Shown here in pieces: positions 6,512-27,657 of a DNA stretch of 64,000 nt. Position numbers and translations under genes: made by a program. Below the pieces are notes generated by a model. That model searched no databases and was not told the DNA's origin. It saw nothing but the letters and a program-made list of their open reading frames with translations. This DNA comes from an uncultured SAR86 cluster bacterium. GTDB lineage: Bacteria > Pseudomonadota > Gammaproteobacteria > Magnimaribacterales > D2472. Positions within the stretch are counted from its first letter, which is position 1. The number at the start of each line of letters is the position of its first letter. The stretch lies in assembly GCA_902520495.1 (NCBI GenBank), contig CABYNW010000001.1, positions 1 to 64,000 on the forward strand, given 5' to 3'.

Positions 6512-7165
6512 ATGAATTTTGAAATAGATAAAGCTTTCAATGGAGGATTTGAATTTGCTAAAAAGAACTATTTATTAGTTTGGGTAAATGGTTTCTTAGC
6601 AATACTTTCAACAGTTCTAGCCTCTATAACAATTGTTGGGATTTTAATAGTTCCTGCAATATGGGCAGGTTACATCGAATCTTGTTTAAGAATAAGAAGA
6701 GGTAAAGAAGTTAAGATGGGAGTTTTTTTTAAAGCTGGTTTTAGTCAATGGGGATCATTTTTTATCTTAACGGTTTTATGTTTTCTAGGCTTTGTTTTGG
6801 GATTTCTTCTGTTGATAATTCCTGGAATATATTTAATGATTGCCTGGTATTTTGTATTTTATTTAAAGATAGACAACCCAGAGCTTACTATTTCAGAAGT
6901 CTTTAGTAAATCTATGGAACTTGTATCTAACGTTGGGTGGTTTAAGTTATTTCTATTTGCCTTAATCATAGCGCTGCCAGTTAACATAATTGATATATTT
7001 ACATTCAACCTTGCTTCTGTGATTCTTTTTCCATTTATAGTTATGATTCAAGTCGAGGCATATATCCTTGCTTCAGGCAAAGAAGAGCTTGTGGATAAAG
7101 AGCTAATTGAAGAAATTCGAATTAATGAAGATTTAATCAATGCAATCAATGACATAGATAATTAG
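6512..7165 (+). CDS. Hypothetical integral membrane protein
   Basis: Several hydrophobic TM segments; ORF well preserved. Confidence 0.65.
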   Translation: MNFEIDKAFNGGFEFAKKNYLLVWVNGFLAILSTVLASITIVGILIVPAIWAGYIESCLRIRRGKEVKMGVFFKAGFSQWGSFFILTVLCFLGFVLGFLLLIIPGIYLMIAWYFVFYLKIDNPELTISEVFSKSMELVSNVGWFKLFLFALIIALPVNIIDIFTFNLASVILFPFIVMIQVEAYILASGKEELVDKELIEEIRINEDLINAINDIDN

Positions 7166-8025
7166 TGGAAACTTCATTACTTTTTAAAACGCTCATAATA
7201 CTTTCGGCTCAATTAGGCATTATTTTGATAATGTGTTTTTATACTTTAAAACAGGCAAGGCTAGCATATGAGAACAATACAACTCTATTTGGAACATCTT
7301 TTAGAGGCTCTGTAAATATGAAGAACCAGCTTAATCTAATTCCTTATATTCAAATAAAAGAAACTTTTCCAAAACCAATGTATAAGAACATAGACAAGAA
7401 TACGAATCTTCATGAACAAGCTAATAATCAAGATGAGGTAATCAAATTACTTAAAGATGGTTATTCTCATCAAATTGAAGGAAGTAATTTCATTGTTGGA
7501 TTAATGATTTTTTGGTTTTGTAATTTATTAGGCACATCAATATTAACATCATTTATTGATATTAATATTTGGATAGGAATGACTCTTTTTACTTTATGTA
7601 GTTTAAGTTTTGGGCCATTACTAGCGTGGATTATGCTAGAAATGGATGAAAATGATGGATTTACTGGAATGAAAATAGTTCTTGTAGTTACTATTTTAAC
7701 TGGTTTCATAGGTTATGGAGACTTTATTTCCTTTGCAGATAGTACCTTATTTGCAATTTTGCTGTTTTTCTCTCTAATTGCTCTTTTATTATTTAATTTC
7801 GCCCGTTTTTTTATGCAAATTAGTAGAGCAACAACAAGAGCTGCAGCAATTTTTGGCTCCTTCCTTTTTTCATTATTTTTACTTTATGATTTTAACTATA
7901 TTAAGAAACAATCAGTCTTATCTTCATCAAATAATTGGGAAACCGCTCTAGATATGGCCTTTATACTTTATTTGGATATCATCAACTTGCTACTTGAAAT
8001 ATTAGATGCAATGGGTAACTCTTAA
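7165..8025 (+). CDS. Hypothetical membrane protein
   Basis: Multiple TM segments; shares one base with the preceding gene's end. Confidence 0.6.
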   Translation: METSLLFKTLIILSAQLGIILIMCFYTLKQARLAYENNTTLFGTSFRGSVNMKNQLNLIPYIQIKETFPKPMYKNIDKNTNLHEQANNQDEVIKLLKDGYSHQIEGSNFIVGLMIFWFCNLLGTSILTSFIDINIWIGMTLFTLCSLSFGPLLAWIMLEMDENDGFTGMKIVLVVTILTGFIGYGDFISFADSTLFAILLFFSLIALLLFNFARFFMQISRATTRAAAIFGSFLFSLFLLYDFNYIKKQSVLSSSNNWETALDMAFILYLDIINLLLEILDAMGNS

Positions 8026-8034
8026 AAGTGAATC

Positions 8035-8727
8035 TTAAAAATTTAATTGATAACCAATTTTCATCGAAGAATCAAAGATCTTGCTTGAAGACATTTCAAA
8101 AGAGACAGCACTTCTTTTATTAATATTATATAAAACACCAATACCAAACTTTCGATCTGTATCGTCCTCTAACTCATATTCAATTGATTGATTACAAACT
8201 TGTCCGGGTGGACATGATTTTACTTTTAGTTCTGAGTCCTTGGATAGGTCTACAAAAAATTTTCCCTCCCAACCAGAGTTGTTACCAAATCTAATACCTG
8301 CAATAACATTTGCTTGAGCATCGTCTTCAGAAAAAGAATTAATATCACTTTCATATGCTGTACTTTTTATACCAAGCTCTGCATATACATCAAAAATGTT
8401 TTTAACACTTAACTTTAATCCTTTTGCAGAAACTGAGCTAAAAATGTCTCCTATGCCGGCATGAATGCCTAATCTTGCTGCATTAATAATACGATCATAT
8501 GAATCATCAGATGTATCAATGCCTTCAGCCTTTCTTTCTATTACAACATATAGGCCGCCTGGTAAAGGGAATGATGCTTTGGCACCAATTGCCGTTTTAT
8601 CTGTTTGAATTAAATCAACACTTAAAGAAGAATATTTAAAGCCATCTGACTCTTCTTCTTTTTTGTCATCAGAAAAAGAAAATAATGAAAATCCAAACAA
8701 TACAGTGATTAAAAAAAGGTTTCGCAT
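8035..8727 (-). CDS. Putative outer-membrane beta-barrel protein
   Basis: Signal peptide; alternating strand pattern; C-terminal ...KIGYQLNF ends in aromatic residue. Confidence 0.6.
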   Translation of the reverse strand: MRNLFLITVLFGFSLFSFSDDKKEEESDGFKYSSLSVDLIQTDKTAIGAKASFPLPGGLYVVIERKAEGIDTSDDSYDRIINAARLGIHAGIGDIFSSVSAKGLKLSVKNIFDVYAELGIKSTAYESDINSFSEDDAQANVIAGIRFGNNSGWEGKFFVDLSKDSELKVKSCPPGQVCNQSIEYELEDDTDRKFGIGVLYNINKRSAVSFEMSSSKIFDSSMKIGYQLNF

Positions 8728-8840
8728 TCTTTATCTTATCAAAATCATGAAAACATTGGGAATATTGGGTACCAATCTTTTATAAAACTATTTTCTATTT
8801 ATATTATTTGCCAAGTTATTTATTTATAATTATTTAGACT

Positions 8841-10154
8841 ATGAAAAATTTTATTATATTTATTCTCTTAACAGCCTCATTTAACGGAATGGCAGATCTT
8901 AAAAATAATTTAGATCAAGACATAGATTCTCTAATGGAGAAAGTTATAGAGTGGCGACATGATATTCATGAACATCCAGAATTAGGCAATAGAGAATTTA
9001 GAACAGCAAAAAAGATAGAAGATCATCTAAGATCATTAGGAATTAAAGTGGAAACCAAAATTGCGTATACAGGCGTGGTTGGCTTGCTTGAAGGCGATTT
9101 GCCTGGGCCAACTATGGCTTTGAGAGCTGACATGGATGCATTGCCTGTAGAAGAAAAAACAGGTCTTCCTTTTGCTTCAAAAGTAAGAACCACATATCTT
9201 GGAAATGATGTTGGAGTCATGCATGCATGCGGTCATGATGCTCACGTAGCAATACTAATGGGAGTTGCAGAGTTCTTAGCAAAAAATAAATCGAGTCTAA
9301 AAGGTAAGGTTATGTTTATTTTTCAGCCTGCCGAAGAAGGTCCACCAGAAGGCGAAGGCGGAGGAGCTGAAATGATGTTAGCTGAAGGAATTTTTGATAA
9401 ATATGATCCAGAGGTTATATTTGGGCTTCACGTTACAAATATCCCCAACGGAGTTCTTTCAGTTAAATCAGGACCAGCTATGGCAGCAGCATCTGCCTAC
9501 AGAATTAAAATAAAAGGTGTTCAGGCTCATGGCTCTACTCCTTGGTCTGGAATTGATCCAATAATGGCAACCGCAGAGTTGATAGAAGCATTGAATACCA
9601 TTGTAAGCAGAAGAATAAATATTATTAATAATCCAGCCGTGATTTCTGTTGGTTTAGTAAGAGCAGGAACAAGGAATAATATTATTCCAGAAGATGCTGA
9701 AATAATGGGGACTATAAGAACTTTTGATCCTGTGTTAAGAACAGAAATATATGAAGAGATAGAGCAGATAGCAAGAGGTGTTTCTGTTGGAACTGGAACA
9801 GATATATCAGTTGAATTTGATGTTGGCGGTTTTTATCCAGTCACCTTTAATGCACCAAAATTAGTTAATACAATGAAAGAATCTCTAATGAAAGCTTCCC
9901 CAGGAAGATTTTATGAATCAAACACCCCAGTAACTGGAGCAGAGGATTTTTCCTATTTTTCTCAGGAAATACCCGGCATGTATTTTTGGTTGGGTATTAA
10001 TAAGCCCGGAGTTGGTTTAGAATCAGCTAATTTTGGAGAAAGGACAGATGTTGCAGGAAATCATTCACCATACTTTTATGTTGATGATTCAGCATTAGAT
10101 GAAGGTGTGAGAGCTTTTGTCTATTTAATAGACGATTATCCATCAAAATTTTAA
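8841..10154 (+). CDS. M20 family amidohydrolase/peptidase, secreted
   Basis: Signal peptide; RADMDALPVEE, MHACGHDAHVA, PAEEGPPEGEGG motifs. Confidence 0.92.
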   Translation: MKNFIIFILLTASFNGMADLKNNLDQDIDSLMEKVIEWRHDIHEHPELGNREFRTAKKIEDHLRSLGIKVETKIAYTGVVGLLEGDLPGPTMALRADMDALPVEEKTGLPFASKVRTTYLGNDVGVMHACGHDAHVAILMGVAEFLAKNKSSLKGKVMFIFQPAEEGPPEGEGGGAEMMLAEGIFDKYDPEVIFGLHVTNIPNGVLSVKSGPAMAAASAYRIKIKGVQAHGSTPWSGIDPIMATAELIEALNTIVSRRINIINNPAVISVGLVRAGTRNNIIPEDAEIMGTIRTFDPVLRTEIYEEIEQIARGVSVGTGTDISVEFDVGGFYPVTFNAPKLVNTMKESLMKASPGRFYESNTPVTGAEDFSYFSQEIPGMYFWLGINKPGVGLESANFGERTDVAGNHSPYFYVDDSALDEGVRAFVYLIDDYPSKF

Positions 10155-10181
10155 TAACGAATATTAATAAGGAGTTTTATA

Positions 10182-11156
10182 GTGGCTATTCACAAACATA
10201 TTGAAGACAATATTTCCATGCCGGTTATTGGAGCACCTCTTTTTTTAGTTTCTGGGCCCGACTTAGTAATTGCACAATGTAAGGCTGGAATAATAGGTTC
10301 TTTCCCAGCCCTTAATGCAAGACCACAACATGTTCTTGAAGAGTGGATTGTTAGAATAAAGACAGAGCTAGCTGAATATCAAAAACAAAATCCTGATGCA
10401 AAAGTAGCTCCTTTCGCCGTTAATCAGATTTGTCATGGATCAAATGATAGATTAATGCAAGATATGGAAACATGTGTGAAACATGAAGTTCCAATAATTA
10501 TTACTTCATTAAGACCACCGGCTGAAGTCGTTGAAGCAGCACATAGCTATGGAGGCCTTGTTTATCATGATGTCATTAGTGTTAGGCATGCTAAAAAGGC
10601 TGCTGAACAAGGAGTAGACGGATTAATTTTAGTTTGTGCTGGGGCTGGAGGTCATGCAGGCGCACTATCACCATTCGCCTTACTTAGAGAAGTCAAGAAA
10701 TGGTTTGATGGAACGCTAATACTTTCTGGATCAATCGGTGACGGTCATGCAGTAGCTTCTGCAATTGCACTAGGTGCAGATTTTGCTTATTTAGGAACAA
10801 GATTTATTGCAACCGAAGAAGCCAATGCTGATCCAGAATACAAGAAAATGCTAGAGGCTAGCGCTGCAGAGGATATTGTCTACTCTTCATTATTTACAGG
10901 TGTTCACGGAAATTATCTAAAACCATCTATTAAAAATGCTGGATTAGATCCAGACAATCTCCCTGATGCAGATAAAGCATCTATGAATTTTGGGTCAGGT
11001 GGAAATACAGACTCAAAGGCTTGGAAGGATATTTGGGGTTCGGGTCAAGGTATTGGCGCTATTAAAGACTCTCCATCTGTTGCAGAGCTTGTTGGCAGAA
11101 TTAAATCTGAATACCAGTCTGCTTTTGAAGCTTTTAAAACTAAAATAGGCAAATAA
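10182..11156 (+). CDS. Nitronate monooxygenase family protein (FMN-dependent)
   Basis: GAPLFLVSGPDLVIAQCKAGIIGSFPALNAR and GAGGHAG motifs; GTG start. Confidence 0.85.
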   Translation: MAIHKHIEDNISMPVIGAPLFLVSGPDLVIAQCKAGIIGSFPALNARPQHVLEEWIVRIKTELAEYQKQNPDAKVAPFAVNQICHGSNDRLMQDMETCVKHEVPIIITSLRPPAEVVEAAHSYGGLVYHDVISVRHAKKAAEQGVDGLILVCAGAGGHAGALSPFALLREVKKWFDGTLILSGSIGDGHAVASAIALGADFAYLGTRFIATEEANADPEYKKMLEASAAEDIVYSSLFTGVHGNYLKPSIKNAGLDPDNLPDADKASMNFGSGGNTDSKAWKDIWGSGQGIGAIKDSPSVAELVGRIKSEYQSAFEAFKTKIGK

Positions 11157-11165
11157 AGAATTCTT

Positions 11166-11333
11166 ATGTTAGAAATCATAATTATAGTCCCGATTATGTG
11201 GATAGTAATGGCAGTAATCTATTCACTCTTGTTAAAAAATGTTGAAGGCACAAAAGGCATTACCTCTGAATATCAAACCAAAGACGGAGTAAAAAGAACT
11301 GCTAAAAAAGATAGAGAAGATTTTATAGTATGA
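11166..11333 (+). CDS. Small membrane protein, 55 aa (absent from ORF track)
   Basis: Own translation MLEIIIIVPIMWIVMAVIYSLLLKNVEGTKGITSEYQTKDGVKRTAKKDREDFIV*; ATGA overlap with the next gene. Confidence 0.55.
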   Translation: MLEIIIIVPIMWIVMAVIYSLLLKNVEGTKGITSEYQTKDGVKRTAKKDREDFIV

Positions 11334-12205
11334 ATAAAGCCTTAGGCTTTATAGGTTTGGGTGTTATGGGATTCCCTATGGCAGGTCATCTTTCCATGCA
11401 AAATAAAAATATTTTTGTTTTTAATAGAACAAATGAAAAATCTAAAGCATGGAATAAAAAATATAATGGAACGATATGTAATTCATTAGAAGATGTTGCT
11501 AAATCATCTGATGTAATAATTCTTTGTGTAGGAAATGATAACGATGTTAGAAAAATCATTTGCGGCGATTGCGGGATTATTAATTACCTAAAGCAGGGAT
11601 CTATAATAGTCGATCATACGACAACATCCGCAGAACTATCTGAGGAAATGAATAAATTACTCAGTACAAAAAATATTCCTTACATTGATGCTCCAGTTTC
11701 TGGAGGTGAGGCAGGAGCACAAAAAGGACAACTATCTATCATGGCTGGCGGTGATAAAGAATCGTATGATTTGGTAAAAAAAATATTAGCATCCTACTCA
11801 AAGCATACTAAATACATGGGTCCAAGTGGTTCTGGACAACTTACAAAGATGGTTAATCAAATATGTATAGCGGGCTTGATTCAGGCTTTAGCAGAAGGGA
11901 TAAATTTCTCAAAAAAGGTAGGTTTAAATAGCGCCGATGTGCTTGAAGTTGTATCAAAGGGTGCAGCTCAATCATGGCAAATGGAAAACAGATGGAAGTC
12001 TATGTTAGAAGATGATTATGATCATGGTTTTGCAGTAGATTTAATGAGAAAGGACCTAGATATTGTTATAAATAAGGCAAAAGAACAAAACATTAGTATT
12101 GATATTACAAAAACTATTAATGATTTCTATAAAGACATTCAAAAAGCAGAAGGGGGAAGGTGGGATACTTCAAGTCTTCTAAGAAGACTCGAGAAATTAA
12201 CCTAA
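11330..12205 (+). CDS. NAD(P)-dependent oxidoreductase, 3-hydroxyisobutyrate dehydrogenase family
   Basis: GFIGLGVMGFPMAGHL and DAPVSGGEAGAQKGQLSIMAGG motifs. Confidence 0.9.
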   Translation: MNKALGFIGLGVMGFPMAGHLSMQNKNIFVFNRTNEKSKAWNKKYNGTICNSLEDVAKSSDVIILCVGNDNDVRKIICGDCGIINYLKQGSIIVDHTTTSAELSEEMNKLLSTKNIPYIDAPVSGGEAGAQKGQLSIMAGGDKESYDLVKKILASYSKHTKYMGPSGSGQLTKMVNQICIAGLIQALAEGINFSKKVGLNSADVLEVVSKGAAQSWQMENRWKSMLEDDYDHGFAVDLMRKDLDIVINKAKEQNISIDITKTINDFYKDIQKAEGGRWDTSSLLRRLEKLT

Positions 12206-12565
12206 GAATAGCTTAGATGAATAAACAAAAACTCCATACCCAATAACAATCATTGCTGATCCAACCTCAAGTGAATCTATGTCTGCAGAATTTGTACTTA
12301 TCATTGAATAGTAGTTCTCAGGATTTAATATTAACCAGAATATTCCAGCCATATGTGTAAACATAATCAAACCAACTATCCAGTTAAAAGGCTGAGCGGT
12401 AAATACAATAAAAGAACATAAAATAATAAATATAAGCTCAATACTTAGAACTACATTAATATTTTTTCTTTTCAACAAATATCTTAAAAGGCTATAACCT
12501 TTGTTGTAGGTAAAAAAAAGTATAAACCCGTATATAAAATACAATGAGGCAAGAAAGTTAATCAT
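12197..12565 (-). CDS. Hypothetical membrane protein
   Basis: 122 aa, about four hydrophobic segments. Confidence 0.5.
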   Translation of the reverse strand: MINFLASLYFIYGFILFFTYNKGYSLLRYLLKRKNINVVLSIELIFIILCSFIVFTAQPFNWIVGLIMFTHMAGIFWLILNPENYYSMISTNSADIDSLEVGSAMIVIGYGVFVYSSKLFLG

Positions 12566-12616
12566 AATAATATCGTATAGTATTAATATTTTTTTATTCC
12601 TATATATTAGTAATTA

Positions 12617-14125
12617 ATGATTACTAAAACAAATTTTATTGACGGCATGCAATGTCAAAGATGCTTTTGGTTTAAATATAATAACTATAAGGACTCCAAA
12701 GAAGATGACCCGCTGGCTAAACAAAGATTAAAAGATGGAGAAGAGGTTGGTCAAAAAGTAAAAGAGATATTTCCAAAAGGCGTAGATATTCCATTTTTAG
12801 GTGGAGATTATTTAAAAATGCATGATTTAACTCTGGAAGCTATCAATCAGGGAGCAGAGGTTATTTTTGAAGGTTCTTTTTTGATTGATGGAATCTTTAT
12901 AAGAGTTGATGTCATGAAAAAAACACCAAATGGATGGGATATTTATGAAGTAAAATCTTCATCAAGTTTAAAACCAGAACATAAAGAAGATGTAGGCATT
13001 CAATGGTTTGTTCTCAATCAGATTAAAGAGATTAAACTTCAAGATGTGTATGTAATCATTTTAAATAAGGAGAACAGCAAAAGAGATAATTATCAACTAA
13101 AGGATTTTTTTAGAGAAAGATGTTTAACCGAGGAAGTTATATTAAATCAACAGAATATTTCAGAAACTTTAAATAACTTAATTAAAGTAACCAGCATGGA
13201 TTCTCCCCCCAAGCTCAGAAAAACCAATCATCCTGATAAGCCTCACAAATGTACTTTTCAAGAGCATTGCTGGCCAGTAGGCTCAAATGAAAAAGATTCT
13301 ATTTTTAAGCTTTATAGAATGCGAAGTAAAAAAAAGCTTTCCTTATATGATCAAGGCATAGATACTTTTAGCAAAATAAGAAATCTTTCAGATTTCTCTG
13401 ATATCCAAAAAATTCAGATAAAATCGACAGTAAACAATAGAGAAATTGTTAATAAAAAAATTATAGAAAAATTTATTTCAACTATATCTTATCCTATAAG
13501 TTATCTCGATTTTGAAACATACACGGAGCCATTGCCTTCATATAACAACCAACGACCAAATGAAAGAATGCCATTCCAATTTTCGCTTCACATTCAAGAA
13601 GACGAAAATACTATTATAGATGCAAAAACTGAAAGCATAGAATTTCTTGCTAACCACTTAAAAGATCCCAGAAGAGATCTAGCTGAGGCATTGTTAAAAG
13701 ACATTCCTGTAAAGGGAACTATCATTACATATCATAAAAGCTTTGAGAAAGGGGTTATAGAAGAATTAGCAAACTTTTGCTCAGATTCAGATATTTCATC
13801 ACAGCTTAGGGCATTAAACAATAGAATCGTAGATCTAAAAGACCCTTTTGCAGAGGGTGGATATTATCATCCAGATTTCGCTGGCAGCTTTTCAATCAAA
13901 AAAGTACTGCCCGCACTATGCAAAGGAGATAAAAATTTAAAATATGATAATTTAAATATTAAAAATGGTGGAATGGCATCAACTGCTTTTAGAGAGCTAA
14001 AACATATGAATAAAAATGAAATACAAATACTTCGAGAAGATTTAAAAAAATATTGTTGGTTAGATACTTACGCAATGTATGCAATATATGAAAAATTGCT
14101 AGAAACTATTAAAAAGAATAGTTGA
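12617..14125 (+). CDS. DUF2779 domain protein: RecB/Cas4-like nuclease region plus DEDD exonuclease-like region
   Basis: N-terminal C..C (MQCQRCFWFKYNN), DVMKK..GWDIYEVKSS nuclease motif, later C-x5-C (KCTFQEHC), C-terminal LDFETY, YHKSFEKG and YCWLDTYAM. Confidence 0.75.
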   Translation: MITKTNFIDGMQCQRCFWFKYNNYKDSKEDDPLAKQRLKDGEEVGQKVKEIFPKGVDIPFLGGDYLKMHDLTLEAINQGAEVIFEGSFLIDGIFIRVDVMKKTPNGWDIYEVKSSSSLKPEHKEDVGIQWFVLNQIKEIKLQDVYVIILNKENSKRDNYQLKDFFRERCLTEEVILNQQNISETLNNLIKVTSMDSPPKLRKTNHPDKPHKCTFQEHCWPVGSNEKDSIFKLYRMRSKKKLSLYDQGIDTFSKIRNLSDFSDIQKIQIKSTVNNREIVNKKIIEKFISTISYPISYLDFETYTEPLPSYNNQRPNERMPFQFSLHIQEDENTIIDAKTESIEFLANHLKDPRRDLAEALLKDIPVKGTIITYHKSFEKGVIEELANFCSDSDISSQLRALNNRIVDLKDPFAEGGYYHPDFAGSFSIKKVLPALCKGDKNLKYDNLNIKNGGMASTAFRELKHMNKNEIQILREDLKKYCWLDTYAMYAIYEKLLETIKKNS

Positions 14126-14867
14126 AGTTTGTAACAAAAGATTGATCTGATTCTTCGGCAAAATCTGGAGGATCACTATCAAAGGACTCAGTTATTTTAA
14201 AATTAATAAAAAACTTCTCCGATACAGGTATTGAGTAACTAAAAGATAAAGAGTATTTATAATCATTACTAAAATTATTCAAAGATGGTTGGAAAAAAGA
14301 TGAAATAGATACAAAAGAGCTATTTTCAAAACTAAAATCTTTAAAAAGATACAAGTTTACTCTTTCAGTTTTTTTCTTTATGCCGTTCAAGCTTTCTTCA
14401 TCTTCATGCAAAATACTTACACTTAACTTAATTTTTTCAAGTTCAGAGAATCGGATACCTGCGCCAAATAGGTTTCTTGTTTTATAGCTTTGAAACGGGT
14501 TTTCACTACTTTGAAAGTAGGCTTCAAGGTCATAAGATTTATTATTTAATTGGCGCAACAATCTTGCATGTAAAAATGTTGATTCGTCCTCAGTGATATC
14601 ATCTTTGGTTCTTTCAGATTTCTCAAAGACAAATAATCTTTCATACTTTTTTGAATTATTTACTAAAGATAAACTTATATCATAATTATCACGATCTTCA
14701 TTCCCACGAGAACCCGAGTAGCCAAATGCTATATTTCTAAATTGACCAATCTCCTCAGATTTTCTAACACTTTCAATATCAACTATAGGCGAAGAAATTA
14801 TATTTAATGTAAAAAAAATAGAAAATGTAATTAGAACACTATTGGTATGAATAAATTTAATATCCAT
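14109..14867 (-). CDS. Putative outer-membrane protein, DUF481-like
   Basis: N-terminal hydrophobic segment; repeated amphipathic strands; C-terminal Phe. Confidence 0.45.
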   Translation of the reverse strand: MDIKFIHTNSVLITFSIFFTLNIISSPIVDIESVRKSEEIGQFRNIAFGYSGSRGNEDRDNYDISLSLVNNSKKYERLFVFEKSERTKDDITEDESTFLHARLLRQLNNKSYDLEAYFQSSENPFQSYKTRNLFGAGIRFSELEKIKLSVSILHEDEESLNGIKKKTERVNLYLFKDFSFENSSFVSISSFFQPSLNNFSNDYKYSLSFSYSIPVSEKFFINFKITESFDSDPPDFAEESDQSFVTNFNYSF

Positions 14868-23383: not shown

Positions 23384-23432
23384 GATTTAGGCTTGATCTT
23401 TTAAATTTTTTTTAGTTTTTAATCTAGCTACT

Positions 23433-23500
23433 AATCTACCCAATCTTCCAATCTTCCAATCTTCCAATCTACCCAATCTACCCAATCTACCCAATCTCCC
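23433..23500. repeat. Tandem array of eight 8/9-bp units (AATCTACCC / AATCTTCC / AATCTCCC)
   Basis: Read directly: ACCC, TTCC x3, TACCC x3, TCCC variants; minus strand has four GGG runs in 23472-23500. Confidence 0.95.
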
Positions 23501-23581
23501 AGCAATCTGACTTTACTTTGACATCCCAAAAAACGGCAGTTAAGGTATATCGCTTTTTTAAAAATTATAGGAGGAAGATGA

Positions 23582-24310
23582 ATGGAAAAAGAGATTTTGA
23601 AATATTATTCAAAGTTTAGGGAGATTTATAATGAAGAAAATTATCCAGAATGGTTTAAATTTCTTAAATATCACAACATGCAGTTTGGTAAAAAGGGATA
23701 TAACAATCAAGAACACGAATTAGGCCATTATGCGATATTACAATCTAGTATTCCTAAAAATCCAATAGTCGTAATGGTAGGCAAAAATAACTCTTGGTTT
23801 ATTCCTAAAAACATGGAAAAGAGTTTAGAGGCAGTAAAATGCCTAGAGAAAAATATACCGGATCAAGATTGGCTTGCAAAAGAAAGTAATTTTGCAAATA
23901 GATTAAACTCCCAAATAAATAAAATTAGCGCCATAGATCCAGAAGCAGCTGATATTTTAGTTAATAAAAGAGTTGGCATGAACAGGTTCTGGCTTCAAAC
24001 TGGTGATAAATGCCCCCACGATAAATTAAAGGAAGCGATGGACGAAAACTATAAGCTTAAATCCGAATGGTTTGCTCTCAAAAAGATCTGTCATAAATGG
24101 ACAGAAGATATCATTAGAACTATAAATCCTGGATTAGTAATACTATTTGGTAGACGGAATGATAATGATTGTGCATGGAACCTATTTGATAAAAGGGAGG
24201 ATGGAGAAAAATTTGTGATTAAACATTGCCCTCATCCTGTTGGACCAAATAATGGTGAAAATTTCAATAAATTCCAAGAGGCGATAAAAGATTGGAAAAA
24301 GAAAATTTAA
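23582..24310 (+). CDS. Hypothetical protein; possible uracil-DNA glycosylase-like fold
   Basis: VVMVGKNNSWF near N-terminus, C..W..DIIRTINPGLVILFGR, and HCPHPVGPN near C-terminus resemble UDG-superfamily layout (inference). Confidence 0.6.
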   Translation: MEKEILKYYSKFREIYNEENYPEWFKFLKYHNMQFGKKGYNNQEHELGHYAILQSSIPKNPIVVMVGKNNSWFIPKNMEKSLEAVKCLEKNIPDQDWLAKESNFANRLNSQINKISAIDPEAADILVNKRVGMNRFWLQTGDKCPHDKLKEAMDENYKLKSEWFALKKICHKWTEDIIRTINPGLVILFGRRNDNDCAWNLFDKREDGEKFVIKHCPHPVGPNNGENFNKFQEAIKDWKKKI

Positions 24311-24516
24311 ATTATTATAAAGTCGATCATAAGTTAGCAGTTGAAATTTGGGGAGTGCTACATAAAGAGGGGTACCGATATATTGCCAATAGTTTATCTG
24401 AGACTATGATTGAACAAGGGTGCCAAGAAATCGAAGTGAAAGATGCTTCTCAGGTTCTAGCTTTCTGGAAAGACTATTTAGAAAAAAATAAGATTATTAA
24501 AATAGAACACGAATGA
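24292..24516 (+). CDS. Hypothetical protein, 74 aa
   Basis: Overlaps both neighbours (19 bp and 4 bp), so likely co-translated. Confidence 0.5.
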   Translation: MEKENLNYYKVDHKLAVEIWGVLHKEGYRYIANSLSETMIEQGCQEIEVKDASQVLAFWKDYLEKNKIIKIEHE

Positions 24517-24866
24517 GACAGGGTCAACTTTTTCCCCTTCTTGTCGATCAAAACGACATTGAAGAATATATTGTCACACAAGAAAGATTAAATTATTGGA
24601 AGGAAGGCGCAATAAGAACCCAAAAGCAGATAAATGATTGCAGAAGTTTATTAAGAGAAGCACAAAACCTTAAAGACAAAATAAGAGAACAAGTATTTGT
24701 AAAGAATAAATTCGGGGCAGACTTCTCAGAAATCAAGATACAAGGTTTTGTCAATCAAGCAAAAAAAGGCATACAAGAAAACAAGAATTTGTTATCTGAC
24801 TATGAATATAATATTAGTGTCTGTGGAGAGCTTTTAAATGAGTATTCTGAATATTTTGCTAAATAG
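24513..24866 (+). CDS. Hypothetical protein, 117 aa, helical/coiled-coil-like
   Basis: ATGA overlap with preceding ORF; charged heptad-like sequence. Confidence 0.5.
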   Translation: MRQGQLFPLLVDQNDIEEYIVTQERLNYWKEGAIRTQKQINDCRSLLREAQNLKDKIREQVFVKNKFGADFSEIKIQGFVNQAKKGIQENKNLLSDYEYNISVCGELLNEYSEYFAK

Positions 24867-24933
24867 TTAGTTTATGTAACACAAGCACAAGCTATCAAAT
24901 AAATATAAAAATAACTTCACCTATATTTATTTG

Positions 24934-26064
24934 TTAGGAAATTTCATTTAACAGATCTAACAATTTCTTTTTAAATTCCTGTTTTTCTGAATTTGATAAT
25001 TCATTTAGGGAATATTTTTCTTTAATTGCTTCAATGCTTTGAAAAATATTAATTTCTTTATCCAAAATCTGCTCTTTGTTAACTTTTTTATCTACCGGCA
25101 CTCTCTGTTTATTTGCAGTTACAAACAATGTACTAAGTTCATCGAGGTCTTTTGGATAATTAATATCGTTCTCTCTAAATTCAAAGTTAAAACCATCTTT
25201 TCCAAGGGCATTTTTAAGCCTTAACCATTTAAGCGCATCATCATATGTATACCCAAATTCCAGTTTTGATTTTCTTTTTGGTCTATTTTCTACATCATTA
25301 AAATATGCTCGTTTAGTACCACCCCATAGCAATAAAAGATCCTCATCACGATAGCTGTAATTTTGAGTATCATGCAACCATAATCTATTTAAGATTTCAA
25401 TTAGCTTTGCACCTTCGGCAAAAGAGCTTAATAAAAATTCAAATGCCTTAACGCATTGCTTAGCCTCAAGACCAAAATAATGAGTTTCAGATTGGTTTTT
25501 GAGTATTGGAATAACCCCCTGACAATAATGACTAAAGCTTTGTATTTCAAAATTAAGCCTATTAGTAACTATTGTTAACATTTCAGCTCTAGAAGAATAT
25601 TCAACTTCCTCAGCAAAAAATCTTACATTATTTTTTTTAAACAAATCCTTTCCGTATGGATTTTTACCCATCAAGAAATAAATTAATCTTGAAATTATTG
25701 ATTTTCCATATAGATAGTTGGTATTAAAATTTACTTTGGGAAGGTCAGAGTTTTGATAGCAATGGTCATAAAACTCAATACAACTTGAATAAACTTCTTT
25801 CCAAAAAAAATCATCAGCCAACAAAGTAATTAGATTCTTTATTCTTTTATCTTTAAATGGTATTAATTTTCTTGATCTCTTATTGAATATAGACCCATAT
25901 TCTTCAACCAAGTTTACATAAATTTTTAATTTGTCCTCAAAATCTTCTGGATATGCATGATCAACTTTGCTCGAGTCAATAGCAAACTTCATTTGATTTT
26001 TCTTCTCCAAAATAGCATCGATGAATACATCATCAAAGGATTTAATTTTTGTGTCAGATGACAT
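24934..26064 (-). CDS. Hypothetical protein, 376 aa
   Basis: Long ORF, no motif recognised. Confidence 0.6.
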   Translation of the reverse strand: MSSDTKIKSFDDVFIDAILEKKNQMKFAIDSSKVDHAYPEDFEDKLKIYVNLVEEYGSIFNKRSRKLIPFKDKRIKNLITLLADDFFWKEVYSSCIEFYDHCYQNSDLPKVNFNTNYLYGKSIISRLIYFLMGKNPYGKDLFKKNNVRFFAEEVEYSSRAEMLTIVTNRLNFEIQSFSHYCQGVIPILKNQSETHYFGLEAKQCVKAFEFLLSSFAEGAKLIEILNRLWLHDTQNYSYRDEDLLLLWGGTKRAYFNDVENRPKRKSKLEFGYTYDDALKWLRLKNALGKDGFNFEFRENDINYPKDLDELSTLFVTANKQRVPVDKKVNKEQILDKEINIFQSIEAIKEKYSLNELSNSEKQEFKKKLLDLLNEIS

Positions 26065-26203
26065 TAAATATTTCCGCTATTTTTAAGATAAATTTCATAA
26101 CTTGCACTCATAAACAATATATGTATATAATACAACATAATTAGTACACAATTTCAAAAGGTGTATAAATTATTAATTACTATAACACAACACAGAGTAA
26201 AAA

Positions 26204-26353
26204 ATGATAAAGGAAATTTTAAATAAGCTGCTAAAAACAAATAATTATTTAAACAACGCTTTTAGCAATAAAAGTATTAAATCCACTAATAAGTTTACCA
26301 AAATTAACAAGCGTGAGATACGTGTAATTTTTGACATGTACACTGAGAGTTAA
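26204..26353 (+). CDS. Possible small ORF, 49 aa (absent from ORF track)
   Basis: Own translation MIKEILNKLLKTNNYLNNAFSNKSIKSTNKFTKINKREIRVIFDMYTES*. Confidence 0.3.
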   Translation: MIKEILNKLLKTNNYLNNAFSNKSIKSTNKFTKINKREIRVIFDMYTES

Positions 26354-26354
26354 G

Positions 26355-26495
26355 ATGAGATATGGATATATTGTGATGCTGAAAATGAGTTCATCAGATG
26401 GTAGTTGGGTCAAAGCCTTTGGTCCCTCGAGCTACGAAATGTGTGCTTCTTTTGCAGCTAAGAGGCGAGAACCCTGTCAGATTCTCCCCGCTTAG
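26355..26495 (+). CDS. Possible small ORF, 46 aa (absent from ORF track)
   Basis: Own translation MRYGYIVMLKMSSSDGSWVKAFGPSSYEMCASFAAKRREPCQILPA*; locally higher GC than surroundings. Confidence 0.35.
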   Translation: MRYGYIVMLKMSSSDGSWVKAFGPSSYEMCASFAAKRREPCQILPA

Positions 26496-26500
26496 ATAAA

Positions 26501-26908
26501 ATGATTTCACAATTCTTCTTAAAGAAAAAAATCTTTAAATACCTAGATAAATTTTCTAAGGAATCTACAAAGGCGGAAATGTTTATGAGTTGGGCAGATG
26601 TAATAGATGTTGCCCAGCATGAATGGAATCAAACGTATATACCTGCAAAACAGTTATACCTATTCGTAAGAGAATGGCATAAAAAAAATAATAGAGCACA
26701 TCTTTTGGATGCGATGAATGAGTTAAATAGATCATTCCAAATTAAAGTGATGGAAGATCTATATAGCGAGTATTTAGATTATTATAGAGAGAGCAAAGAT
26801 CCATCTGATTTAGAATTTGCAAATGATTGCCTTCGAAATGCTTCAAAAATAAGAAGTTTCCCAAAAAAAGATCTTCATATATATCTCTCTAATTATCTTG
26901 GTGGTTAG
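26501..26908 (+). CDS. Hypothetical protein
   Basis: 135 aa ORF directly abutting the next gene. Confidence 0.5.
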   Translation: MISQFFLKKKIFKYLDKFSKESTKAEMFMSWADVIDVAQHEWNQTYIPAKQLYLFVREWHKKNNRAHLLDAMNELNRSFQIKVMEDLYSEYLDYYRESKDPSDLEFANDCLRNASKIRSFPKKDLHIYLSNYLGG

Positions 26909-27106
26909 ATGACATCTTTTTTAATTTTTATATTTGCCGTTGCAGCATTTTTTAAGCACTTTCCAGAAGCTGCAAGTTTTTTACTTACATTAAACTACTT
27001 GATTGTGACAATCATATTGTTGGCATTATTTGGTTGGAATTTCTTTACAGGACTATTGGTAGTGTTATTTTTACTTAATATGTTCGGAATGTTTGACGAG
27101 GCGTAA
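26909..27106 (+). CDS. Small membrane protein, 65 aa
   Basis: Two hydrophobic segments. Confidence 0.5.
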   Translation: MTSFLIFIFAVAAFFKHFPEAASFLLTLNYLIVTIILLALFGWNFFTGLLVVLFLLNMFGMFDEA

Positions 27107-27123
27107 TTGATATAAGAGGATTT

Positions 27124-27612
27124 ATGGAATTTGAAAGAATTAGAGTGACTGATCAAGGGGTTGTAAGACTAAAAAAAATAACAATAGTAATACCTCTTTA
27201 TAATGATAGAGAAAAAGAAATTGAGATTACAACTTCAAACAGAGAATTAATACATATCGCAATCAATAGGCAAGTCTTGCTAAATGATTTTTCAAGAAAT
27301 TCAGAGTTTATATATGAAAGAATTTTACAAATACTTTTAAGAAGTAAGGATATTTCGATGGATGACAAATGTTTGTTTGAGGATTGGAACTATCATTCAA
27401 TTAGGTTTAAGAATTATGAAGGTAAAAAATGTAACAGCAAAGAGAAAAAGCTTTTTTATACAAACAAATCAGATAAAATTTTTGAACGCATTAATGGCAA
27501 TAGAGATGCAACTTGGCGAGAGTACATGGATATTATAAGCTATGATCCTTGTATGCAAATTAATGCTTCAGTGAATAATATTATGGGGATAGATAAAAAT
27601 TATGACAAATGA
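27124..27612 (+). CDS. Hypothetical protein, 162 aa
   Basis: ORF in series with preceding genes; no motif recognised. Confidence 0.5.
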   Translation: MEFERIRVTDQGVVRLKKITIVIPLYNDREKEIEITTSNRELIHIAINRQVLLNDFSRNSEFIYERILQILLRSKDISMDDKCLFEDWNYHSIRFKNYEGKKCNSKEKKLFYTNKSDKIFERINGNRDATWREYMDIISYDPCMQINASVNNIMGIDKNYDK

Positions 27613-27657
27613 TGTTCAACAAATGGATATAACTATAGCTTAGTTAAGCTCTTTCCC

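What the first reader, a model, noticed from the sequence alone, without database searches (positions are those of the whole stretch)
23582..24866. Three overlapping orphan genes led by a possible UDG-fold protein
ORF 23582..24310 has an N-terminal VVMVGKNNSWF strand-loop, a middle C..W..DII..INPGLVILFGR and a C-terminal HCPHPVGPN, the layout of uracil-DNA glycosylase superfamily members. It overlaps a 74-aa ORF, which overlaps a 117-aa coiled-coil-like ORF by ATGA. A modified-base glycosylase with two small partners in an accessory block could be DNA repair or anti-phage. This is the best candidate here for an undescribed system, but function is inferred only.
Basis: inference. Interest (0 to 1): 0.6.

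Follow-up and report, generated by a model that had tools for sequence, protein, structure and literature searches.

The report
Mobile uracil-glycosylase-like gene, new branch
A small-genome bacterium carries, at a spot where its relatives carry other genes, an unnamed relative of the enzymes that cut abnormal bases out of DNA; its neighbours in other genomes suggest it may protect against viruses with modified DNA, but the two small genes beside it are not a conserved part of it.

Summary
The three overlapping ORFs exist as described and all look coding. The 242-aa protein matches no Pfam, NCBIfam, PHROGs, PADLOC, phage or plasmid entry on its own. Four relatives recovered step by step, three in the same order and one in a Zetaproteobacterium (32% identity, E=7e-26), tie it to the uracil-DNA glycosylase (UDG) superfamily. 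The Zetaproteobacterial relative sits exactly at Pfam's UDG cut-off; the family profile's next-best hits in 369 genomes are nearly all UDGs; a five-sequence AlphaFold model of that relative finds SMUG1, TDG/MUG and family-4 UDGs as its top 32 solved structures. Active-site positions N69, N134 and H218 are present. The gene is accessory: it sits in a variable-cargo lipA-dctM spacer that is empty (15 bp) in one congener, and its genome has a separate Ung and an eroded second family copy. Relatives lie in an integrase island beside another UDG-like gene, near a methylase/helicase cluster, or after guaA. The 74- and 117-aa genes occur beside none of them. So the UDG reading holds and the three-gene system does not. 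Most likely it is a mobile glycosylase acting on modified phage DNA, Brig1/Brig3-like in action; an accessory repair enzyme is the main rival.

The parts
23384..27657 (.). Variable-cargo spacer between lipA and the TRAP gene dctM
   Evidence: In 13 congeners lipA and dctM are adjacent but separated by 15 to 3483 bp of differing genes; empty (15 bp) in L060; none holds the window's cargo
23433..23501 (.). Tandem repeat, 9-bp period, about 8 copies, ahead of the operon
   Evidence: TRF score 81; the repeat finder D1
23570..23574 (+). Shine-Dalgarno GGAGG, 7 nt before the ATG at 23582
   Evidence: sequence
23582..24310 (+). UDG-superfamily protein, 242 aa (group A of the new family)
23768..23800 (+). 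Motif 1: VVMVGKNNSWF, residues 63-73; G67, N69, S71, F73 invariant in five members; N69 at the place of SMUG1 N85 / MUG N18
   Evidence: alignment A5; residue roles from PMC6749576 and PMC5387724; correspondence inferred
23975..24004 (+). Motif 3 region: GMNRFWLQTG, residues 132-141, at the end of the second core strand; G132, N134, R135, Q139, T140 invariant
   Evidence: A5; strand 134-138 in the homologue model
24128..24151 (+). Third core strand PGLVILFG, residues 183-190; P183, G190 invariant
   Evidence: A5; hhalign A5 vs family-4/5 UDGs, probability 91%, E 1e-6
24224..24253 (+). Motif 2: HCPHPVGPNN, residues 215-224; HP shared with the Zetaproteobacterial homologue (HHPSNRNGG), lost in group B
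24292..24516 (+). 74-aa ORF overlapping the glycosylase gene, no family
   Evidence: absent from 17 other genomes
24513..24866 (+). 117-aa helical, coiled-coil-like ORF, ATGA overlap, no family
   Evidence: absent from 17 other genomes
24892..24937 (.). AT-rich hairpin (16-bp arms, 14-nt loop) between the operon and the convergent 376-aa orphan gene; likely two-way terminator

Best explanation
ORF 23582-24310 encodes a DNA glycosylase of a previously undescribed, rare and mobile branch of the UDG superfamily, nearest in fold to SMUG1 (family 3). It most likely flips an unusual pyrimidine into a pocket formed by motif 1 (GKNNSWF), motif 3 (GMNR) and motif 2 (HCPHP) and hydrolyses the N-glycosidic bond, leaving an abasic site. 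Because it is carried beside a normal Ung, at a variable site, and because relatives sit in an integrase island or near a methylase/helicase/nuclease cluster, its likely target is incoming phage or element DNA with modified pyrimidines (such as hmU, hmC, U or derivatives). The abasic sites would block replication, as shown for Brig1 and Brig3. Shown here: real genes, superfamily membership, conserved active-site positions, accessory and mobile distribution. Inferred: catalysis, substrate, defence role. The two small downstream genes are co-transcribed passengers or a lineage-specific addition of unknown role.
For: Homologue in a Zetaproteobacterial MAG: 32% identity, E=7e-26, at Pfam UDG's cut-off of 24.3 bits, E=3.6e-5. 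Three more members in the order; for two of them the profile search gives E=7e-51 and 1.6e-47, the third is 25% identical with E=2e-6. Sub-threshold hits of the five-member profile in 369 genomes of the class: five of the six genomes outside its own give family-4/5-type UDG ORFs; three of these as a profile match family-4 UDG 4zbx at 1e-50. Profile-profile comparison with those UDGs: probability 91%, E=1e-6. AF2 model of the homologue: pTM 0.59, strands in UDG order. Foldseek: top 32 PDB hits all SMUG1, UNG, TDG/MUG, family-4 UDG or UdgX, best E=9e-5. Separate Ung in the genome. Variable, once-empty site. Mobile or defence-type contexts of relatives. Eroded second copy in the same genome. Precedents: Brig1 PMC11078745, Brig3 PMC13160076.
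Against: The window protein itself hits no family model. The AF2 model is of the homologue, with mean pLDDT 55.7 and TM-scores of about 0.34-0.45 to solved UDGs; the window protein's own two-sequence model failed (pLDDT 37). Group B members lack the motif-2 His. Only two of five loci sit among mobile or restriction-type genes; the Zetaproteobacterial copy lies next to oadA and one copy alone after guaA. The lipA-dctM site in congeners holds DUF805-like and SGNH-hydrolase-like genes (named from memory), not known defence genes. No phage data.
Confidence: 0.5

Rival explanations
1. Accessory DNA-repair enzyme: a SMUG1-like glycosylase that removes deaminated or oxidised bases from the host's own DNA and spreads by horizontal transfer because it adds repair capacity to a streamlined genome.
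For: Fold neighbours are repair enzymes; Asn in motif 1 plus His in motif 2 is the SMUG1-type pair (PMC6749576). Single-gene contexts next to guaA and oadA need no defence neighbourhood.
Against: Patchy occurrence: 4 of 203 genomes of the order, none in the congeners searched; decay of a second copy in the same genome; an integrase island and a restriction-type neighbourhood for two relatives; the genome already has Ung.
Confidence: 0.28
2. A dedicated three-gene system in which p74 and p117 are needed partners (sensor, regulator or inhibitor of the glycosylase).
For: Tight overlaps, shared composition and a terminator-like hairpin after the third gene. Brig3 too has an overlapping partner gene (PMC13160076). 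The G053 homologue is followed by an unrelated 71-aa helical ORF.
Against: Neither small protein has a homologue in the four genomes that carry a glycosylase homologue, or in 13 congeners. BapA is an ASCH protein of more than 250 residues, unlike these. The Zetaproteobacterial copy has a convergent core gene 93 nt downstream.
Confidence: 0.12
3. A UDG fold without glycosylase activity, used as a DNA-binding or regulatory protein of a mobile element.
For: Divergent motif 1 (KNNS where others have NP) and loss of motif-2 His in group B.
Against: N69, N134 and, in group A, H218 are kept across 20-30% identity.
Confidence: 0.08
4. Not UDG-related; the resemblance is chance.
For: No direct Pfam or meaningful PDB sequence hit for the window protein.
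Against: Homologue at Pfam cut-off, class-wide profile hits to UDGs, and the Foldseek result.
Confidence: 0.02

Closest known systems
SMUG1 (UDG family 3), e.g. Geobacter metallireducens SMUG1 (PDB 5h93, 5h98) and human SMUG1 (9gm2)
   Same: Best fold matches; Asn in motif 1, His-Pro in motif 2, Asn at the end of the second core strand
   Different: No detectable direct sequence similarity to SMUG1 chains in the PDB; GKNNSWF for GMNPG (SMUG1 motif from memory); extra invariant GxNR..xQT block; SMUG1 is usually a repair enzyme
Brig1 and Brig3-BapA anti-phage glycosylases (PMC11078745, PMC13160076)
   Same: UDG superfamily, similar size (Brig1 is 261 aa), accessory loci, small operon with overlapping genes; Brig3 has N50-P51-S52 where the Zetaproteobacterial homologue has N-P-S in motif 1
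Family 4/5 UDG (UDGa/UDGb) and UdgX
   Same: Middle helix and strand (IxxxKPKxxxxxG) match in profile comparison
   Different: No conserved cysteines for an iron-sulphur cluster among the invariant columns; motif 1 is GxN, not GEAPG
MUG/TDG (family 2)
   Same: Asn in motif 1; group B also lacks the motif-2 His
   Different: Group A has the motif-2 His; fold match weaker than SMUG1

Membership tests
UDG superfamily (Pfam PF03167) | Profile match at curated cut-off | tested here: inconclusive
   Window protein no hit; 32%-identical homologue at exactly 24.3 bits, E=3.6e-5; family profile retrieves UDGs in other genomes
UDG superfamily (Pfam PF03167) | Alpha/beta/alpha fold with a four-stranded sheet and motifs at strand ends | tested here: met
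   Model of the homologue, pTM 0.59, strands 69-73, 134-138, 183-187, 209-213; Foldseek top 32 all UDG superfamily. Low mean pLDDT (55.7); transfer to the window protein is by homology
UDG superfamily (Pfam PF03167) | Base-excision activity | not testable with these tools
   needs an assay
SMUG1 (family 3) | Asn in motif 1, His in motif 2, base-contact Asn on the second strand | tested here: met
   N69, H218, N134 in the window protein; correspondence inferred from alignment and strand order (PMC6749576)
SMUG1 (family 3) | Sequence similarity to SMUG1 chains | tested here: not met
   No SMUG1 chain with phmmer or profile up to E=10; so filed as a SMUG1-like branch, not as SMUG1
Family 4 UDG | Conserved cysteines of the iron-sulphur cluster and GEAPG motif 1 | tested here: not met
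   No cysteine among invariant columns; motif 1 GxNxS
Family 1 Ung | Motif 1 GQDPY | tested here: not met
   GKNNSWF instead; the genome's Ung is elsewhere with GQDPY and HPSPLSA
Brig-type defence glycosylase | Location among defence genes | tested here: inconclusive
   G053 copy is about 4 kb from a methylase, SNF2 helicase and NOV_C protein; G130 copy in an integrase island; other three not
Brig-type defence glycosylase | BapA-type (ASCH) partner | tested here: not met
   Partners are 74 and 117 aa without any family match
Brig-type defence glycosylase | Sequence homology to Brig1 or Brig3 | not tested
   Their sequences were not at hand
Brig-type defence glycosylase | Protection against phages with modified bases | not testable with these tools
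   needs plaque assays

The most novel reading that the evidence does not exclude
A new, horizontally moving branch of SMUG1-like glycosylases, with two subgroups that differ in motif 2, serves as immunity of small-genome bacteria against phages that replace or decorate pyrimidines, with base specificity unlike Brig1 or Brig3.
Probability: 0.35. Interest if true: 0.65.

Novelty: new variant of a known kind. Interest (0 to 1): 0.42.

Why it matters
Only a few glycosylases are known to act as anti-phage weapons; Brig1 and Brig3 were found by functional screens of soil DNA. A family that standard models miss, found only by walking through relatives, adds candidates with defined active-site residues and a ready assay. 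If the defence reading is right, it would point to unknown base modifications in phages of small-genome, uncultured bacteria.

Tried and rejected
tblastn in phages and plasmids found nothing, except a chance hit to a microvirus capsid gene. First genome-contig scan: none; second: only the Zetaproteobacterial copy. Zetaproteobacterial relatives: no further copy in 200 genomes. Class search with P0001: scattered short hits, taken as chance apart from the own-genome ones. Weak order-level hits L003-L012: those read (L004, L008) encode other proteins; the rest were dismissed unread. AF2 with two sequences failed. PD-Lambda-3, LPD11, DUF7642 and similar weak hits lie below any cut-off. A score test of family members with a UDG profile against 1000 shuffles puts all five on top, but those UDGs had been picked by the family profile, so it is not counted as independent. 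Direct link of P0002 to this family: hhalign probability 2%, not supported.

Full report
OBSERVATION. The three ORFs are as described: 23582-24310 (242 aa), 24292-24516 (74 aa, TTG start, 19-nt overlap) and 24513-24866 (117 aa, ATGA overlap), with GGAGG 7 nt before the first ATG. All three are coding-like by codon log-likelihood. They share a third-position GC of 0.27-0.28, against 0.18-0.19 in lipA and dctM. A hairpin at 24892-24937 separates them from a convergent orphan gene.

SEARCHES WITH THE PROTEIN ITSELF. The 242-aa protein has no match in Pfam, PADLOC, PHROGs or NCBIfam, none of note in the PDB, and none in phages, plasmids or viral contigs. No other genome of its genus among those searched carries it.

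WALKING TO RELATIVES. A weak order-level hit led to a 235-aa protein in genome G130 (E=2e-6, 25% identity). A profile of the two found a 240-aa protein in a Zetaproteobacterial MAG (JAJRVG010000219.1), 32% identical to the window protein over 223 alignment columns, E=7e-26. A three-member profile then found two more members in the order: G053 (E=7e-51) and G200 (E=1.6e-47). The five form two groups: A (window, Zetaproteobacterium) and B (G130, G053, G200; 43-54% identical to the G200 protein). Eighteen alignment columns are invariant, including G67, N69, S71, F73, G132, N134, R135, Q139, T140, P183 and G190 of the window protein.

UDG SUPERFAMILY. Four lines of evidence agree. (1) The Zetaproteobacterial homologue scores 24.3 bits against Pfam UDG, exactly the curated cut-off, E=3.6e-5. 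(2) The five-member profile, run over 369 genomes of the class, gives sub-threshold hits in six other genomes; in five of them the ORF is a family-4/5-type UDG. Three of these ORFs as a profile match family-4 UDG 4zbx at 1.5e-50. (3) hhalign of the two profiles: probability 91%, E=1e-6. (4) An AF2 model of the Zetaproteobacterial homologue from the five sequences alone has pTM 0.59 and strands in UDG order. Its top 32 PDB matches are all SMUG1, family-4 UDG, UNG, TDG/MUG or UdgX, led by Geobacter SMUG1 at 9e-5 with probability 1.00. The model is of modest confidence (mean pLDDT 55.7) and TM-scores are about 0.34-0.45, so the fold class is supported, not the detail. The window protein's own two-sequence model failed (pLDDT 37).

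ACTIVE SITE. In human SMUG1, Asn85 and His239 catalyse, and Asn163 and Phe98 hold the base (PMC6749576). [quoted passage not shown] By alignment and strand order, the window protein has N69 in motif 1, N134 at the end of the second strand, and H218-P219 in motif 2. This is the SMUG1-type combination. Group B keeps the two Asn but not the His-Pro. These correspondences are inferred from alignment, not from superposition.

SETTING. The genome has its own Ung on another contig. The spacer between lipA and dctM is a variable-cargo site: in 13 congeners it ranges from 15 bp (empty, L060) to 3483 bp, holds DUF805-like, SGNH-hydrolase-like or unknown genes (family names from memory), and never the window's cargo. 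A 47-aa C-terminal remnant of a group B member lies on contig 9 of the same genome. In G130 the homologue is beside a second, weakly UDG-matching gene in an island with a phage-type integrase, a resolvase and a GIY-YIG protein next to guaA. In G200 it stands alone right after guaA. In G053 it lies about 4 kb from a methylase, SNF2 helicase, NOV_C protein and PD-(D/E)XK nuclease. In the Zetaproteobacterium it is next to oadA (gene name from memory). The family is rare: 4 of 203 genomes in the order, one other among 399 in the phylum sample.

PARTNERS. p74 and p117 have no homologue in any fetched locus, nor in the genomes of G053, G130, G200, the Zetaproteobacterium or 13 congeners. The three-gene unit is therefore local to this genome as far as could be seen.

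MECHANISM. The best reading is a mobile glycosylase that excises a modified pyrimidine and leaves abasic sites, likely in invading DNA. Brig1 (PMC11078745) and Brig3 (PMC13160076) set the precedent: UDG-superfamily glycosylases that stop phages with glucosyl-hmC or hmC, the second in an operon of overlapping genes. In Brig3, N50 is required for defence and lies at a metal ion close to the bond to be cleaved, within N50-P51-S52; the Zetaproteobacterial homologue has N-P-S in motif 1, the window N-N-S. This is a hint only. Direct homology to the Brig proteins could not be tested. The main rival is an accessory repair enzyme.

VERDICT. A real, divergent UDG-superfamily branch in mobile settings; the enzyme claim is well supported, the defence role is plausible, and the three-gene system is not supported.

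Noticed in passing
L091:6423-6566 (G000 contig 9, 23423-23566): A 47-aa C-terminal remnant of a group B glycosylase in the window's own genome (profile E=1.4e-7): a second, eroded copy.
   Followed up: yes
L039:7686-8414 (-) and 6531-14542: In G130 a second, different UDG-like gene (Pfam UDG E=9e-4) is directly downstream of the homologue, in an island with integrase, resolvase and GIY-YIG gene beside guaA.
   Followed up: partly
L081:12423-19250: Cluster of PD-(D/E)XK nuclease, HTH-like protein, N6/N4 methylase, 160-aa and 427-aa unknowns, SNF2 helicase and NOV_C protein: looks like a restriction-type defence system not named as a whole by PADLOC.
   Followed up: partly
window 23384-27657 and L057-L069: The lipA-dctM spacer is a hot spot for cargo exchange among congeners (DUF805-like, SGNH-like, other genes); L057 and L059 share a cassette of about 85-87, 122-127 and 176-180 aa ORFs.
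   Followed up: partly
window 23433-23501: Nine-base tandem repeat (about 8 copies, CCCAATCTA/TCCAATCTT) between lipA and the operon; role unknown.
   Followed up: no
window 24934-27612: Four further orphan ORFs (376, 135, 65 and 162 aa) fill the same spacer and match no family or fetched locus.
   Followed up: partly
L081:9004-9219 (-): A 71-aa helical ORF follows the G053 homologue on the same strand; unrelated in sequence to p74 or p117.
   Followed up: no
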